Below are positions 18,923 to 60,005 of a stretch of 64,000 bases of DNA, one piece after another; position 1 is the first letter of the stretch; every line of letters begins with the position of its first letter. The stretch covers positions 1,240,001 to 1,304,000 of the forward strand of contig NZ_CP013373.1 of the NCBI RefSeq assembly GCF_001522585.2, read 5' to 3'. Origin of the DNA: Burkholderia sp. NRF60-BP8. GTDB lineage: Bacteria; Pseudomonadota; Gammaproteobacteria; Burkholderiales; Burkholderiaceae. A model generated the notes under the pieces. That model saw only the letters and a program-made list of their open reading frames with translations, had not been told where the DNA came from and did no database searches. The position numbers and the translations under genes are program-made.

Positions 18923-20203
18923 CTACCGCATCACGGTTCCCGCGCTGTCGAGCACGAAGTCGACGCAGAACACGACGAGCCGGCTCTGCGCGCGGATCGC
19001 GACGGCGGCCGTATAGCAGTCGCGGCCTTCCGTCAGCGAGAAATGCGGGCCCATCAGCGCGACGCGCCCGGGGGCGGCGATCGCGCGCTGGAAATACGGG
19101 CGCCGCGACCAGTTGCTGTGGGTTTCCGGGAAGAGCGGCGCGAGGCGGGTCACGCTCGCCTGGCTGTCGTCGGGCGGCGCACCGATCGACGGCAGGAACT
19201 GTTCGCCGGTCTCGTCGGTGACGAACACGCGCCGCGCGGCCGGTACCGCGAACACGCGTTGCGCGGCGTCCTGCAGGTTGCCGCTCGCCGAAAACGCGGC
19301 CGCGCCGGTGAGCACGAGCCGTTCGATCGCGTCGAAGCCCGGCTGCTGGGCGGCCACCGGCGTGTGCCGGCGGGCGATGAAGCGCCGCCACGCGGCATCG
19401 AGCATCGCGGGCGCCGCCGCGCTCGCGTGCGCGATCGATGCATCGGGCTGGCCGAACTGGAAACCCTGCACGAAATCGATGTCGGCTTCCATCAGCGCCT
19501 GCAGTGCGTCGTCGCTTTCGACGCCTTCGGCCAGCACCATCGCGCCGGCCTGATGCAGCATCGACACGAGGTGATGCATGATGCGGCGATCGTCGGCCGA
19601 GGCGGTCGAGCGCTCGACGAGCGAGCGGTCGAGCTTCACGATGTCGGGCCGCGCCCGCCACACGCGGTCGAAGTTCGAGAACCCCGTGCCGAAATCGTCG
19701 ATCGCGATCAGGAAATCGCGATGCTGGATCATGTCGATCGTGCGGGCAAGCGCGGCTTCGTCGCGTGCCGGCTGCTCGACCACTTCCAGCACGATGCGGT
19801 TCGGCGGCAGGGCGAAATGCCGGCACAGCGCCTCGACGAACTCGCGCTGCACGAGGCCCGTGTCGAGCACGCGCGGCGTCACGTTCAGGAACAGCCAGCC
19901 GTCGCCGATTCCCTGCGTGACGAAGTTGGCCGTGTGCAGGCAGCGCGCGAGCCGGTCGAGCAGCAGCGCGTCGGCGTCGCCGCGCGTCTTGTCGAACAGG
20001 GCGGTGGGCGACACCAGCGCGCCGTTCCCGTCGACGACGCGCAGCAGCGCCTCGTAGCCGACGACGCGCTTGTGCGTGATCGACAGCACGGGCTGGAACA
20101 CGCTGCGCAATGTCGTGGCGCGGTAGGTGGCGAGCCAGCCGTGGGGCGTCGGCGTGAGGCGTTCGAGCAGGGCGTCGAGCGACAGGTCGCGGCTGGACTT
20201 CAT
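18923..20203 (-). CDS. EAL-domain cyclic-di-GMP phosphodiesterase with C-terminal sensor-like domain
   Basis: The 426-residue protein has an EAL domain at about 30-265. The residues needed for metal and c-di-GMP binding can be read: E51 (YEALLR), N107, E143, D169-D170 (DDFGTGFSNFD), K190 (KLDRSLVE), E226 (AEGVES) and Q246 (QGFQFG). It therefore looks active in turning c-di-GMP into pGpG. There is no GGDEF domain. Residues about 280-426 contain WSRRPYFQRAI and GPHFSLTEGRDCYTAAVAIR, which resemble a PAS/Cache-like ligand domain, as in the EAL protein YkuI. No transmembrane segment is evident, so it is probably cytosolic. I preferred ATG 20203 to longer arginine-rich extensions. Confidence 0.88.
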   Translation of the reverse strand: MKSSRDLSLDALLERLTPTPHGWLATYRATTLRSVFQPVLSITHKRVVGYEALLRVVDGNGALVSPTALFDKTRGDADALLLDRLARCLHTANFVTQGIGDGWLFLNVTPRVLDTGLVQREFVEALCRHFALPPNRIVLEVVEQPARDEAALARTIDMIQHRDFLIAIDDFGTGFSNFDRVWRARPDIVKLDRSLVERSTASADDRRIMHHLVSMLHQAGAMVLAEGVESDDALQALMEADIDFVQGFQFGQPDASIAHASAAAPAMLDAAWRRFIARRHTPVAAQQPGFDAIERLVLTGAAAFSASGNLQDAAQRVFAVPAARRVFVTDETGEQFLPSIGAPPDDSQASVTRLAPLFPETHSNWSRRPYFQRAIAAPGRVALMGPHFSLTEGRDCYTAAVAIRAQSRLVVFCVDFVLDSAGTVMR

Positions 20204-20707
20204 GTCGACGGTGCCCGGGAGCGGGCGGCGGCGCACCGCCACGCCGATGCAGCCGCATGCGCAGGCGGACGCGAAAGAACGGGGGGCATCGAAACCGCCT
20301 TCTGCGGATGAGTGTTCCGAGTGTAACGGGATTGCCGCGGCGCGCGTATCAGGGTAACTCCAGACGCAAACGGTACACCGCGATTCCGGCCCGCGCGCTG
20401 CGGCGCGGCGACCGGCCTCGCGTGCATGCGTACGGTGCATGACCGTCGCGAAACGAAGCGCGCCGCGGCGGCGGACGACGATCCCGCGTCCCGCCACCGG
20501 GCGGCGGCATGGCCGTGCGTCGCTGCCGTCCGATGCGCAGGCCGATGCGGGAAATCCCGGCGGCCGGAGCCGCCGCCGTCAGACGAATGAGCCAGATGCG
20601 TGCGCGCCGCGGCGCGATCGGCGGCGCGTCCGCATACCCGCGTCGCGTCGCGTCGCCATCGGCATTGCCGGCGGACGGCGGTCTCCGCGCGCCGGCCGCG
20701 CCGATCG
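20204..20707. other. Intergenic region without recognised feature
   Basis: About 500 bases separate the EAL gene from the EamA gene, both on the minus strand. Open frames here are arginine/alanine-rich and lack ribosome sites. I see no terminator with a T-run and no convincing promoter. Confidence 0.4.
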
Positions 20708-22691: not shown

Positions 22692-24858
<2,167 letters not shown>

Positions 24859-25134
24859 TAGCAAGGGCACACGATACACCGGCTTGCCGGCGGTTTCAAC
24901 CGGGTGCGAAGCCGATGCCGCCGGGCGACGGGCGGATCGCGACCGCCGGCGCGCGCACGGTGCGCCGCAGCAAGCGCGGCCGTCGACGCGCGATGCCGTC
25001 CGGGACGGAAGAGGCGGGCAGTGCAGCATTTCCATCCCGTGTTTCCGGCTTCAAAAAATTTTTCGACATCGCTGTCATTTCCGGCGGCGTCCTCCGTCTA
25101 TTCGGCTCCCAAACCCATGTATCGGAGAGATGTC

Positions 25135-35602: not shown

Positions 35603-36628
35603 TCACGCCTTGCGCAAGTGCAGCTCGGCGGCCGGCGGCGCAATCGTCGCGCCGTCGCGTACCGCATGCGACAGGATCATCGACGTGCGGTCGATCGCCG
35701 CGCCGCCGATGGATTCGACGAGACGCTGCCAGGCGTGGCGGCCGATGTCGCGGTTCGGCGTCGCGACGCTCGCGAGCGGCGGCGCGAGCAACTCGCCGAT
35801 CGCGATCCCGTCGAAGCCGAGCACCGACAGGTCGTCGGGAATCGAGAAACCCGCGCGACGCAGGCCGCGCATCACGACCATCGCGAGCAGGTCGTTGCTG
35901 CAGAAGAGGGCGGTCGGGTGCGTGGCGTGCGCGGTGAGGTGCGCGAGCACCGCATCGGGCAGCTCGGGCGCGTTGAAGTCGACTTCGACGGGCGGCAACG
36001 GCGCCACGCCGATTTCCTCGAGTGCCTGCGCGTAACCGAGATGACGCTGGCGCGCGCGATCCGACGCCGCGAGCGAACCGGCCAGCATCAGCACGCGGCG
36101 ATGACCGTGCGCGGTCAGCATCTTCACGCCGTCGTAGGCGGCGCGGCGGTTGTCGACCGACACCGACGGACGGCGCTGCGTGTCGTTGTGCATCAGCACG
36201 TAGTGCGGGCCGTCGCGGTCGAGCATGTCGAGCAGCGGGTGCGTATCCGCATCGGCGACGGTGAGGATCAACCCTTCGACGCGCTGCTCGCGCAGCGTCT
36301 CGATCGCATGACGCTCGCGCGCCGCGTCGTATTCGGTCGTCATCAGGATCAGCTTGAAGCCGGCCGCGGTCGCGAGCGCATCGATGCCTTGCAGGCAGTC
36401 GGCGAACACCGGGTTCGACAGCGTTGGCACGACGACGCCGACGAGCCGCGTGCGCTCGCCGCGCAGTTGCCGGCCGAGCGGGCTCGGGCGGAACTGCAGC
36501 GTGTCGATGGCGGTGCGGATCGTCTGCAGCGTGGCGGGGCTGACCGTATGCGGCGCGTTGATCGCACGCGAAACGGTGGCGATCGAGAAGCCCGCGAGGG
36601 CGGCGACGTCCTTGATGGTCGAGGTCAT
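35603..36628 (-). CDS. LacI family transcriptional repressor
   Basis: The 341-residue protein begins MTSTIKDVAALAGFSIATVSRAIN, the classic LacI helix-turn-helix and hinge, followed by a periplasmic-binding-type sensor domain (LVGVVVPTLSNPVFADCLQGID, ALFCSNDLLAMVVMRGL, IPDDLSVLGFDGI). ATG 36628 is chosen because the HTH starts right there; the frame extends upstream without family similarity. Two AAACGTTT palindromes lie directly upstream (36644-36678), so it probably represses itself. The transport operon that begins 72 bases downstream on the same strand is its likely target, and may be co-transcribed. Confidence 0.92.
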   Translation of the reverse strand: MTSTIKDVAALAGFSIATVSRAINAPHTVSPATLQTIRTAIDTLQFRPSPLGRQLRGERTRLVGVVVPTLSNPVFADCLQGIDALATAAGFKLILMTTEYDAARERHAIETLREQRVEGLILTVADADTHPLLDMLDRDGPHYVLMHNDTQRRPSVSVDNRRAAYDGVKMLTAHGHRRVLMLAGSLAASDRARQRHLGYAQALEEIGVAPLPPVEVDFNAPELPDAVLAHLTAHATHPTALFCSNDLLAMVVMRGLRRAGFSIPDDLSVLGFDGIAIGELLAPPLASVATPNRDIGRHAWQRLVESIGGAAIDRTSMILSHAVRDGATIAPPAAELHLRKA

Positions 36629-36643
36629 GAAGTCATGCGATGT

Positions 36644-36678
36644 AAACGTTTTCGGCCGGGGAATTATCGAAAACGTTT
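36644..36678. promoter_or_regulatory. Paired LacI-type operators
   Basis: AAACGTTTTCG (36644-36654) and CGAAAACGTTT (36668-36678) form an 11-base inverted repeat. Each arm contains AAACGTTT, itself an 8-base palindrome with the central CG step that LacI hinge helices bend. They lie 16-50 bases before the repressor start codon. Confidence 0.7.
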
Positions 36679-36922
36679 GTGACTTCGCGATGACGCATGC
36701 GACGCTTGTTTCGCGATGAGCACGATACAAACGTCAGACGGTTCAGGCCGTCCGACACGCGCGGTCGATTGTATCGGCCGAAGGTGCGGCGCGGGACGAA
36801 ATCGTCGGCCGTGCGGTATCGGTGTCGTATCGGTGCCGAATGCGCGGGAGGAAACGGTGCGACGATGGCCGGTGTCGCGATGCGGCGCGGCGCAATGAGG
36901 GAACGCATGCGCCAAGCAATGG

Positions 36923-36943: not shown

Positions 36944-37277
36944 GCCGGGGTGATGAAATTGGTAAACATAGCGGACTTAAACGATTGAGTGCCCGGCCGG
37001 AAACGGTCGGTGCAGAACCCTTCAAATTCGGCGAAACCCCTGATGTGCGCATCGAGGCAACGCCGAGCCAAGCCTCGCGGCACGCGCGAGGAAGGTGTAG
37101 AGACTAGACGGGGGGCACCTAAGGCGCACGGGCAGTGGTCACGCCCGCGCGCGACGGTGAAGGCATAGTCCAGCGCACGAACGGTTCGCGCACGCGACGC
37201 CGGCTTCGAAAGAAGCAGTGTGACGAAAATCCGCCGCCTTAATTGGCTTGCCGGTTCAAGTCCGGTCCCCGGCACCA
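36944..37277 (+). tRNA. tRNA-Leu(UAA), interrupted by a group I intron
   Basis: Exon 1 is 36944-36978 and exon 2 is 37226-37277, giving an 87-nt mature tRNA with encoded CCA (37275-37277). Acceptor GCCGGGG pairs with CCCCGGC (37267-37273). The D stem is ATG/CAT around AAATTGGTAAA. The anticodon stem GCGGA (36971-36975) pairs with TCCGC (37230-37234) and the joined loop is CTTAAAA, anticodon TAA. A class II variable arm (GCC, loop TTAATT, GGC) and a T arm (GCCGG, TTCAAGT, CCGGT) complete it. The intron sits between U34 and A35. Gene finders may report only fragments here. Confidence 0.95.
36979..37225 (+). ncRNA. Group I intron in the anticodon loop of tRNA-Leu(UAA)
   Basis: The 247-nt insert starts AAACGATTGAGTG and ends in G (37225), the omega-G. 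P1 forms between exon ACTT (36975-36978) and intron GAGT (36987-36990), with the hallmark U-G pair at the 5' splice site. P2 is GCCCGGCCG / CGGTCGGTGC around GAAA (36991-37013). P4 pairs TTCGGCG with CGCCGAG; the latter is followed by CCAAG as in element Q. Element R is at about 37098-37118 (TAGAGACTAGACGGG) and S at about 37162-37171 (GGCATAGTCC), pairing as P7 through GACTA/TAGTC. The layout follows the cyanobacterial tRNA-Leu(UAA) IC3 introns. No homing endonuclease ORF is present. Confidence 0.93.
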
Positions 37278-37313
37278 TCGATCGCCCGACGCGATTCGAT
37301 TCGATGAAGGTGT

Positions 37314-37351
37314 AAAAAACCCGCGAGAAATGCAGCGCTCGCGGGTTTTTT
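37314..37351 (+). terminator. Intrinsic terminator of the tRNA-Leu gene
   Basis: AAAAAACCCGCGAG pairs with CTCGCGGGTTTTTT around a 10-base loop. It lies about 37 bases after the encoded CCA and would also work on the minus strand. Confidence 0.92.
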
Positions 37352-37493
37352 GTTTGGTGCGGATGCATGCAGCGGCACGCGCGTGCGGCTCGCGCTGCGC
37401 GTCGATGCGACGAAAGCGCCGCCATGTGATACTTGGCACGCGCGTCTTACCGACGCATTCCAACGCAGTTCGCCTCTCGCCATCCCATCCGTC

Positions 37494-58531: not shown

Positions 58532-59093
58532 GCGGTGAGCTCCTGTAAGCGGGGAACGACGGCGCGAGGCCGTCGAGGACAGCGTGAAGTGTGCCAGCAT
58601 GACTTTTGCGGAAAAAGCCGCATCCGGGCGAAATTATCTTGATTTCATGTCAACAATGCAGCGTGCGGGCGAACGCATGGCGTGACCTGGGAGCCATGCT
58701 TCGGCGGGGAAGGCGAGCGCCGATGGCCGACGTCGCGCAATAGCCGGAAAGCCTTTCACCGCCGGGCTCGACGGCAAAAAAGCCCCGACCACAGGGGGAC
58801 CGTGGCCGGGGCGGAAACGCATCCTCTCTTTGGCACGAGGGGTTGGATGCGCGCGCAGTATATTTCGGGCCATGACGATTCGAATCGGCGTTAAACGACT
58901 GTTTTTGGTGTCAATTTGAAAATTGCGGGGTCGTGGCGTCGTCCGTCGGCGTTCCGAAAGATTTTTCGAAGACGCGATGGCGTCGTTTAGTCCACGAAAA
59001 CCGCAGAAACGCCGGGATCGCGGAAATGGGCCTTCCGTTCGTCGGCGTGGCAACGTGCGTCGTCCGATCGCGCGCCGATGCATCCGCCTTCGT
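58532..59093. other. Intergenic region with candidate small RNA
   Basis: About 560 bases between the MFS start and the LysR stop, both on the minus strand. It contains a promoter-like element, two hairpins and a strong terminator on the minus strand (58776-58862). No coding frame is credible. Confidence 0.5.
58776..58862 (-). ncRNA. Candidate small RNA or attenuated leader
   Basis: On the minus strand TATACT (58862-58857) is a good -10. About seven bases on, near 58850, a hairpin begins (GCATCC pairing with GGATGC) with a C-rich loop holding AACCCCTC. Then GCCCCG-G-CCAC pairs with GTGG-T-CGGGGC around a C-rich loop (GGTCCCCCT), followed by six T residues ending at 58776. The predicted RNA is about 75 nt. 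It ends about 245 bases before the MFS start codon, so it could be an independent RNA or a terminated leader of that gene. No -35 of good quality is seen. Confidence 0.6.
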
Positions 59094-60005
59094 TCAGCCC
59101 GATTCGCCGGCCGCCTCGCGGACCGCCGCCAGGAAACGCGCGACGACCGGCGACGGCGCCGCCGCCGCGCCGTCGAACACGAACTCGATGTCGAAGCGGC
59201 TCGCGAGTTCGTCGAGCGCGACGAGCCGGACCGTGCGCGGGCAGGTCGGCGACGCGCTTTCCGGCACGAACGCGCAGCCCATCCCGGCCGCGACGAGACC
59301 GATCAGCGTCGGGATGTCGCTGCCGACCTGCGCGATGCGCGGCGTGAAGCCGGCCTGCTGGCACTGGGTCATCAGGAACCGGTGGTGCGCGGCGGAGCGC
59401 TGCGCATCGAACCAGACGAACGGCTCGTTCGCGACGTCGGCCAGCGTGCGCGGCGCGACGAAGCGGCCGCCCGGCGGCGCGGGCATCGCCAGCACGAAGC
59501 GATCGCTCAACAGCCGTACGCCCGTCAGGTGCGGCGCTTCCTCGCGACGCCACGCCATGATCCCGGCGTCGAGCTGGCCGCGCATCAGCGCGTTCGCCTG
59601 TTCGGCCGACAGCATCGGCGCGATCGACAGTTTCACGTCCGGGCACGCGTCGCGAAACGCCTTCAGGACGTTCGCGACGACCGGCAACGGCAGGCAGTTC
59701 GGCAGCGCGCCGAGCCGCAGTTCGCCGAGCTGGCCGGCCGCACTGCGCAACGCGCGCTCGCGGCTGTCCTGCAGCATCGCGAGCAGACCGGTCGCGTCGT
59801 GCAGGAAGCTCGTGCCGGCCGCCGTGAGCGTGACGCCCGTCGCGCGGCGAATCAGCAGCGGCGTGCCGATCGCGTCCTCGAGCTCGCGGATCTGCCGCGA
59901 CAGCGCCGGCTGCACGATGCCGGCCGCGCGGGCGCCGGCCATCACGCTGCCGGCTTGGGCGACGGCGACGAAGTAGCGCAGGTGACGCAGTTCGATCTGG
60001 CGCAT
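59094..60005 (-). CDS. LysR family transcriptional regulator
   Basis: The 303-residue protein begins MRQIELRHLRYFVAVAQAGSVMAGARAAGIVQPALSRQIRELEDAIGTPLLIR, the LysR DNA-binding domain, and has an effector domain (GELRLGALPNCLPLPVVANVLKAFRDACPDVKLSI, VGSDIPTLIGLVAAGMGCAFVPES). ATG 60005 is chosen because the HTH begins there. It diverges from a PLP-dependent dehydratase-like gene with 165 bases between starts, the likely regulated partner. Confidence 0.91.
   Translation of the reverse strand: MRQIELRHLRYFVAVAQAGSVMAGARAAGIVQPALSRQIRELEDAIGTPLLIRRATGVTLTAAGTSFLHDATGLLAMLQDSRERALRSAAGQLGELRLGALPNCLPLPVVANVLKAFRDACPDVKLSIAPMLSAEQANALMRGQLDAGIMAWRREEAPHLTGVRLLSDRFVLAMPAPPGGRFVAPRTLADVANEPFVWFDAQRSAAHHRFLMTQCQQAGFTPRIAQVGSDIPTLIGLVAAGMGCAFVPESASPTCPRTVRLVALDELASRFDIEFVFDGAAAAPSPVVARFLAAVREAAGESG

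What the first reader, a model, noticed from the sequence alone, without database searches (positions are those of the whole stretch)
36944..37277. Group I intron splitting a proteobacterial tRNA-Leu(UAA) gene
The tRNA is complete only when 247 bases between U34 and A35 are removed. The insert has a U-G pair at the 5' splice site, terminal G, P1, P2 with a GAAA loop and recognisable P, Q, R and S elements in the order of the cyanobacterial and plastid tRNA-Leu(UAA) introns. Self-splicing introns at this exact site are classic in cyanobacteria and uncommon in proteobacteria. It may mark horizontal transfer of the intron or whole tRNA locus, and splicing of an essential tRNA would then limit growth under conditions that disturb ribozyme folding. 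I do not claim that it is unreported.
Basis: partly seen in the sequence, partly recalled or inferred. Interest (0 to 1): 0.78.

Follow-up and report, generated by a model that had tools for sequence, protein, structure and literature searches.

The report
Ribozyme intron in an essential tRNA-Leu
The gene for the only tRNA found that reads the leucine codon UUA in this bacterium is split by an RNA intron of the self-splicing kind; every genome of its genus that was examined carries it, so it is an old resident of a known kind rather than a recent import from cyanobacteria.

Summary
A 334-nt tRNA-Leu(UAA) gene (36944-37277, +) is interrupted by a 247-nt group I intron (36979-37225) exactly between U34 and A35. 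All 78 hand-assigned pairs P1-P9b are standard in the window; on 37 relatives 94.4% of cells pair (36-41% in slid controls) and 33 pairs show two-sided changes. No other tRNA-Leu(UAA) gene was found in the genome. All 65 genus genomes held have the intron; none shows a strong uninterrupted copy. In a sister genus (code g20), the 59 genomes listed split 32 with intron to 27 without: a natural, base-exact empty site, with the same neighbour gene in 22 of the 27. A neighbour-gene tree puts 21 of those 22 in one clade nested among carriers, which suggests loss. In an intron tree the window sits in a mainly betaproteobacterial clade, far from cyanobacteria. Introns at this site are not uncommon in proteobacteria: 36 of 80 named loci read. 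So: real, old, known kind. By-product: an alphaproteobacterial-type intron-bearing tRNA-Leu(UAA), beside aac(3)-II in all six records read, matches 1,293 of 72,556 plasmid records and 635 of 5,426 E. coli genomes.

The parts
36944..36978 (+). 5' exon of tRNA-Leu(UAA), ends at U34
   Evidence: ARAGORN on spliced and unspliced sequence; exon and junction identical in 36 of 38 intronless relatives
36979..37225 (+). Group I intron, 247 nt, last base G
37226..37277 (+). 3' exon of tRNA-Leu(UAA), A35 to encoded CCA
36975..36990 (+). P1: exon ACUU (36975-36978) with internal guide GAGU (36987-36990), U-G at the splice site, extended by A36979-U36986 and A36980-U36985
   Evidence: 222 of 222 cells paired in 37 introns
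36991..37013 (+). P2 with GAAA loop (37000-37003)
   Evidence: 96.1% of cells paired, 4 pairs with two-sided change
37018..37023 (+). P3 5' strand (3' strand 37110-37115)
   Evidence: 222 of 222 cells paired
37028..37066 (+). P4 (37028-37033 with 37061-37066) enclosing P5 (37039-37057)
   Evidence: P4 97.7%, P5 93.8% of cells paired
37067..37096 (+). P6 (37067-37069 with 37094-37096) and P6a (37073-37091)
   Evidence: P6 111 of 111 cells; P6a 81.3%, 7 of 7 pairs with two-sided change
37102..37106 (+). P7 5' strand (3' strand 37166-37170), G-binding helix
   Evidence: 185 of 185 cells paired, invariant
37116..37159 (+). P8, length-variable
   Evidence: Outer 4 pairs 100%; inner part 85.2% paired, 9 of 9 pairs with two-sided change
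37175..37221 (+). P9.0 (37175-37178 with 37218-37221) enclosing P9 (37182-37202) and P9b with GAAA loop (37203-37216, loop 37208-37211)
   Evidence: P9.0 148 of 148 cells; P9b 98.4%
37313..37352 (+). Terminator-like hairpin with flanking A and T runs downstream of the tRNA
   Evidence: -21.9 kcal/mol, z -3.77; the consensus scan found none, its loop limit being 8 and this loop 10

Best explanation
This is the sole tRNA-Leu(UAA) gene found in a Burkholderia-type genome (genus name inferred), carrying an old group I intron without a homing-enzyme gene between U34 and A35. Shown by sequence: gene, exact boundaries, conserved ribozyme fold, intron in 65 of 65 genus genomes with no strong uninterrupted copy, base-exact empty sites in a sister genus. 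Inferred from established group I chemistry: the pre-tRNA folds, guanosine bound at P7 attacks after U34 (the U-G pair in P1), the 3' OH of U34 then attacks after the terminal G, and the halves join; without this no tRNA would read UUA. [quoted passage not shown] It behaves as a passive passenger.
For: Boundaries and tRNA. Rfam: 38.2 bits, sole match in the genome. Structure: 78 of 78 assigned pairs standard in the window; on 37 introns 94.4% of cells paired against 86.8% shuffled (0 of 500 as high) and 36-41% slid, 33 pairs with two-sided change. Sole gene: of 67 tRNA matches in the genome, the 13 of class II size were read and none has anticodon UAA; BLAST with the spliced tRNA gives the two halves of this gene, Leu(CAA) and Leu(GAG) genes and two short matches without a tRNA. 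Genus: 65 of 65 with intron; in each the best match to the uninterrupted tRNA is the 3' half, E 1.5e-20 or weaker, against 1e-26 to 1e-35 for real intronless g20, g10, g11 and g15 genes. Sister genus, 59 genomes listed: 32 with intron, best uninterrupted-tRNA match 1.6e-14; 27 without, all tRNA-Leu(UAA) by ARAGORN. Loss: 21 of 22 intronless loci with the LacI-family neighbour form one clade (99% SH-aLRT) nested among carriers. Intron tree: window in the genus clade (99%), in a 52-row mainly betaproteobacterial clade (99%), cyanobacterial introns outside on a branch of 1.37. Longest stop-free stretch in the intron 82 codons.
Against: No RNA data: splicing, GTP dependence and rate are not shown. 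RF00028 stays below its gathering score (38.2 of 50). A single-strand fold of the pre-tRNA prefers a structure without P3 and P7 (the program cannot draw pseudoknots). Both trees are quick ones without bootstrap and warn of long branches; the forks that nest the intronless clade among carriers have only 83-88% and the root is a midpoint. Type-A introns of the family are one side of a branch (78%, weak) but not. LacI-gene descent is a proxy for the species tree; 16 of 38 intronless and 15 of 70 intron-bearing loci lacked a long LacI match and were left out. 24 of the 67 tRNA matches (class I size) were not read.
Confidence: 0.95

Rival explanations
1. The intron or the whole tRNA locus came into this lineage recently from a cyanobacterium, another class or a phage.
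For: Such transfers seem to occur elsewhere: 2 of 3 gammaproteobacterial introns nest among betaproteobacterial type-B introns; at least 32 of 80 viral-contig loci read carry tRNA-Leu(UAA) introns; an alphaproteobacterial-type copy rides on plasmids.
Against: 65 of 65 genus genomes carry it; 30 of 32 viral introns fall outside the 54-row, mainly betaproteobacterial clade that holds the window and none falls with the window's genus; cyanobacterial introns are far outside; the same neighbour gene flanks many carriers and non-carriers. Intron G+C is 0.65 in a window of 0.69.
Confidence: 0.03
2. The intron needs a protein helper and is not efficiently self-splicing.
For: Not excluded: no RNA test. 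The pre-tRNA has strong competing folds.
Against: Compact core, two GAAA-capped helices in the window and P3, P7 and P9.0 paired in every cell, like tRNA introns recalled to self-splice in vitro (Anabaena, Azoarcus).
Confidence: 0.15
3. The gene is silent and UUA is read by another tRNA.
For: UUA is rare: 2 of 1,622 leucine codons in 40 ORFs picked mechanically.
Against: No other tRNA-Leu(UAA) gene found; P1, P3, P6, P7, P9.0 pair in every cell of 37 sequences; both halves of the tRNA are intact in all 30 genus genes read.
Confidence: 0.01
4. The intron is kept because splicing gates the supply of the UUA-reading tRNA, so that a few UUA-bearing genes respond to conditions that affect ribozyme folding (like bldA control in Streptomyces, recalled).
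For: Sole tRNA found for a very rare codon; intron in 65 of 65 genus genomes.
Against: No RNA or phenotype data; part of the sister genus lacks the intron; persistence needs no benefit if demand for the tRNA is low.
Confidence: 0.05

Closest known systems
[quoted passage not shown]
   Same: Same tRNA, same U34/A35 site, same core order, U-G at the 5' splice site, terminal G, similar size (Anabaena 250 nt by PMC2729099).
   Different: In the intron tree four cyanobacterial introns form a separate group on a branch of 1.37 outside the proteobacterial ones.
Other proteobacterial tRNA-Leu(UAA) introns (alpha, beta, gamma; found here; one gammaproteobacterial report by Vepritskiy et al. 2002 is recalled, the paper is not held)
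   Same: Same site; the mainly betaproteobacterial ones are the nearest relatives in the tree.
   Different: Different tRNA scaffold and often a shorter intron in type B (for example L079: 226 nt, CAAGGGACTT exon).
tRNA-Ile2 introns of Acidovorax and Burkholderia (tRNAscan-SE 2.0, PMC8450103, passages read)
   Same: Group I introns in anticodon loops of the same or related genera, missed by a tRNA finder.
   Different: Other tRNA; the 11 Met/Ile2(CAT) introns in my tree fall outside the window's 52-row clade.
Azoarcus tRNA-Ile and Agrobacterium tRNA-Arg(CCU) introns (recalled)
   Same: Small proteobacterial tRNA ribozymes (recalled).
   Different: Other tRNA genes; no Azoarcus or Agrobacterium sequence was compared here.

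Membership tests
Group I intron | 5' splice site after U paired with G in P1 | tested here: met
   U34-G9 in 37 of 37 introns
Group I intron | Intron ends in G | tested here: met
   All 30 genus introns read end in G before AAAATCC
Group I intron | P3-P7 pseudoknotted core with P4, P6, P8, P9.0 | tested here: met
   P3, P6, P7, P9.0 100% paired, P4 97.7%, outer part of P8 100%
Group I intron | Covariance-model match | tested here: met
   RF00028 E 1.6e-7 in the 3-kb stretch, 8.9e-8 in the genome
Group I intron | Rfam gathering score (a curation threshold, not a biological definition) | tested here: not met
   38.2 of 50 bits. In the 14 control genomes the family rings in 4 and passes the cut-off in 2
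Group I intron | Guanosine-initiated self-splicing | not testable with these tools
   Needs RNA
tRNA-Leu(UAA) intron family | Insertion between U34 and A35 of tRNA-Leu(UAA) | tested here: met
   empty site in relatives
tRNA-Leu(UAA) intron family | Common descent with the cyanobacterial introns at this site | tested here: inconclusive
   The cyanobacterial group lies apart on a long branch beside other tRNA introns and beside viral introns; the tool warns that long-branch joins are often false
Mobile (homing) group I intron | Encoded homing endonuclease | tested here: not met
   Longest stop-free stretch in the intron 82 codons; the longest intron called in the family loci read was 368 nt

The most novel reading that the evidence does not exclude
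A ribozyme gate on a rare codon: in all 65 genus genomes examined the only UUA-reading tRNA found must be spliced by its own intron, so ribozyme folding (Mg2+, temperature, GTP) could set the expression of a small set of UUA-bearing genes, an RNA-catalysed counterpart of bldA control.
Probability: 0.05. Interest if true: 0.8.

Novelty: new member of a known kind. Interest (0 to 1): 0.4.

Why it matters
A bacterial genus seems to depend on a ribozyme to make one tRNA, yet plain ARAGORN and the default Rfam cut-off both miss the gene, so a routine annotation could report no tRNA for UUA. The sister genus holds natural intron-plus and intron-minus versions of the same locus, which makes the cost or use of a tRNA ribozyme directly testable. 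The same blind spot hides an intron-bearing tRNA gene on over a thousand plasmid records.

Tried and rejected
Rejected: recent transfer from cyanobacteria. Rejected: a second tRNA-Leu(UAA) gene. I first suspected that the gene marks a secondary replicon, because the plasmid search hit large plasmids of Mycetohabitans and plasmids of Vallotia; in this genome the replicon holds the only DnaA-family match, so it is taken as the main chromosome. No phage record matched the gene. No promoter consensus was found upstream. Neither aac(3) nor tmrB was found in the 18 alphaproteobacterial loci tested, several of which come from the same genomes.

Rows dropped before counts: structure alignment, 37 of 55 type-A genes fetched. 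Intron tree: 6 of 30 genus introns; L097 (368-nt call in a doubtful region) and L063 left out; named loci without a clear tRNA left out. Tree: Leu introns and viral ones only; L097, L135, L118 and L063 left out. LacI tree: see the Against line; genus rows thinned to 8. Family search: 71 genomes without a match were not listed, so g20 members could be among them.

Papers: PMC8450103, PMC3984707, PMC11835236, PMC4033280, PMC7228111, PMC11915505, PMC8172020, PMC2729099, PMC4476775 and PMC5733544 were seen as passages only; others as search listings. Searches. No title or abstract start listed there reports the tRNA-Leu(UAA) intron in Burkholderia or the intron-bearing tRNA beside aac(3)-II; (tmrB with group I intron) found no paper. 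Most subscription papers are not held, so this is weak evidence of absence.

Full report
What is there. The window holds a tRNA-Leu(UAA) gene at 36944-37277 (+) split by 247 nt at 36979-37225. Without the insert the gene folds into a standard 87-nt class II tRNA with encoded CCA. Plain ARAGORN finds no tRNA in the 64 kb. Rfam's group I model matches at 38.2 bits, E 1.6e-7, under its gathering score of 50, so the default scan shows only a TPP riboswitch. In the 7.08-Mb genome it is the only RF00028 match at E <= 0.001.

Structure. I assigned P1, P2, P3, P4, P5, P6, P6a, P7, P8, P9.0, P9 and P9b by hand, helped by the Rfam alignment; all 78 assigned pairs are standard in the window. The structure was counted on a MAFFT alignment of 37 family introns that was not fitted to it. 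94.4% of cells pair, against 86.8% in shuffles (0 of 500 as high) and 36-41% when partners are slid; 33 pairs have two-sided changes. P1, P3, P6, P7 and P9.0 pair in every cell. P1 joins exon ACUU to the guide GAGU with U-G at the splice site in 37 of 37. L2 and L9b are GAAA loops in the window. Because the structure was drawn on the window, the slid control is partly favoured by construction; the two-sided changes in P2, P5, P6a, P8, P9 and P9b are the stronger part. The weakest helices are P6a (81.3%), inner P8 (85.2%) and P9 (89.2% and one pair at 71.4%).

Only gene found for its codon. A covariance search finds 67 tRNAs in the genome at E <= 0.01, none at this gene. The 13 of class II size were read: three Leu(CAG), one each of Leu(CAA) and Leu(UAG), two Leu(GAG), four Ser, one Tyr and one SeC; none has UAA. 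Of the other 54, all of class I size, 30 were read and none is Leu; 24 were not read. BLAST with the spliced tRNA gives the two halves of this gene, Leu(CAA) and two Leu(GAG) genes, and two short matches without a tRNA. The replicon holds the only DnaA-family match, so it is taken as the main chromosome. UUA makes up 2 of 1,622 leucine codons in 40 mechanically picked ORFs with high G+C at third positions; these ORFs are not proven genes.

Spread. All 65 genomes of the genus have the intron. When the same 65 are searched with the uninterrupted tRNA, the best match in each is the 3' half (E 1.5e-20 or weaker); no genome shows the 1e-26 to 1e-35 match that the intronless genes of g20, g10, g11 and g15 give. 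Weaker matches over positions 6-87 (79%) are the Leu(CAA) gene in the window's genome; in the others they were not read. The family search (398 genomes) shows a mixed picture. In the code genus g20 (Paraburkholderia-like, my inference) one search lists 59 genomes: 32 with a match spanning the intron and 27 without. All 27 have an uninterrupted tRNA-Leu(UAA); in the 32 carriers the best match to the uninterrupted tRNA is 1.6e-14, so no such copy. The family includes Mycetohabitans and Vallotia, since the coordinates of G108, G156 and G071 equal those of named records. The name Burkholderia for the window's genus is inferred; no tool states it.

Empty site and direction of change. The LacI-family gene upstream of the tRNA (35603-36730, Pfam LacI and periplasmic-binding domains) is also beside the intronless gene in 22 of 38 intronless loci, all 22 in g20, where 27 were read. 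The 5' exon and the first 10 bases of the 3' exon run through the junction unchanged in 36 of the 38 intronless loci. In the tree of this neighbour protein, 21 of the 22 intronless loci form one clade (99% SH-aLRT) nested among intron carriers, and one (L239) falls near it: the tree needs two changes, starred branches force one. The nesting forks have 83-88% and the root is a midpoint, so the direction is likely, not proven. The simplest reading is presence in the common ancestor and one or two exact losses. How an intron is lost exactly (recombination with a copy of the spliced RNA, or replacement by an intronless relative's gene) is not shown.

Relatives. After correcting one-base shifts in ARAGORN's calls, 43 of the 80 are tRNA-Leu(UAA) introns: 36 proteobacterial, 4 cyanobacterial, 2 acidobacterial, 1 Eremiobacterota. 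Others were called in tRNA-Arg, Met/Ile2(CAU), Thr and Asn genes, and some loci had no clear tRNA. In a tree of 117 introns the window lies in its genus (99%), inside a 52-row clade of mainly betaproteobacterial Leu introns (99%); the cyanobacterial introns lie outside on a branch of 1.37. The type-A introns of the family are one side of a branch there with weak support (78) and not. The trees are quick, without bootstrap, on 222 and 218 columns, and warn of long branches.

How it works. By established group I chemistry, guanosine bound at P7 attacks the phosphate after U34, U34 attacks after the terminal G, and the tRNA halves join. This is inferred; nothing here shows RNA. There is no homing-enzyme ORF, so the intron is best seen as an immobile passenger kept by descent. 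Low demand for the tRNA may let a slow ribozyme persist (inference).

Novelty. Group I introns at this site are known from cyanobacteria and plastids (passages of PMC4476775 and PMC2729099), bacterial tRNA introns from alpha- and betaproteobacteria (PMC4033280), and tRNA-Ile2 introns from Burkholderia (PMC8450103). A gammaproteobacterial tRNA-Leu(UAA) intron is recalled (Vepritskiy et al. 2002; not held). The window's intron is a new member of a known kind; the genus-wide presence, the sole-copy status and the natural empty sites are the parts I did not find in the listings.

By-product: plasmids. The plasmid search with the window gene gave a distant second group. It is a whole tRNA-Leu(UAA) gene with an intron of 212 nt in L059. 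In five of the six records read an AAA-type ATPase gene (TmrB-like by recall) and aac(3)-II lie beside it; in the sixth, L063, aac(3)-II is listed nearby but no ATPase gene. It matches 1,293 of 72,556 plasmid records, 1,260 of them over at least 80% of the query, 944 predicted conjugative, and 635 of 5,426 complete E. coli genomes. The plasmid gene table holds no RNA genes, so its blanks say little; in the E. coli collection, whose annotation includes RNA genes, the 30 listed of 658 records show no feature under the match and the two read show none. In L063 a hypothetical CDS is annotated over it. Its intron groups with alphaproteobacteria (99%). Among the 14 genomes and the 385 the best match is 94%, to a Bradyrhizobiaceae MAG; similarity there begins about 160 bases upstream of the gene. 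So this stretch of the resistance unit appears to come from an alphaproteobacterial chromosome (inference); the donor was not found.

By-product: viruses. The collection may include prophage edges with host DNA; at least one contig is plainly phage, L391, which encodes RIIA and RIIB (4 of 10 proteins tested from four contigs had PHROG matches). 30 of the 32 lie outside the mainly betaproteobacterial clade that holds the window, and none lies with the window's genus.

Noticed in passing
L059:3990-4287, L063:1111-1410, L366:4001-4322, L367:4001-4322, L497:2501-2822, L498:2501-2822: An intron-bearing tRNA-Leu(UAA) of alphaproteobacterial type lies near aac(3)-II in the six records read, no tRNA being annotated in the two E. 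coli records; it matches 1,293 of 72,556 plasmid records and 635 of 5,426 E. coli genomes.
   Followed up: partly
L368-L447 (viral contigs), e.g. L391:9631-9671: Viral contigs carry tRNA-Leu(UAA) genes with group I introns at the same site (at least 32 of 80 loci read): possible vehicles for such introns.
   Followed up: partly
L080, L081, L082, L083, L095, L099: tRNA-Leu(CAA) genes with introns at the same position; in the tree these introns nest among type-B tRNA-Leu(UAA) introns, suggesting spread between paralogous tRNA genes or an anticodon change. In G139, G108 and G156 (G108 and G156 being Mycetohabitans by coordinates) both Leu tRNAs are split.
   Followed up: partly
L061, L062, L085: In Mycetohabitans and Vallotia the intron-bearing tRNA-Leu(UAA) sits on a secondary replicon recorded as a plasmid; whether it is their only UAA copy was not tested.
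   Followed up: no
L100, L101, L102: Single genus members carry further tRNA introns, called by ARAGORN as Thr(UGU), Arg(CCU) and Met/Ile2(CAU).
   Followed up: no
L060:2001-2178: Cupriavidus necator pBB1 matches only the 5' part of the tRNA-Leu intron gene (query 1-176) and no tRNA is called: apparently a remnant.
   Followed up: no
window 24748-24864 (-): TPP riboswitch, 64.7 bits.
   Followed up: no
window 18923-20497 (-) and 58933-59976 (+): The only two of 40 mechanically picked ORFs in the window with a UUA codon, one each.
   Followed up: no
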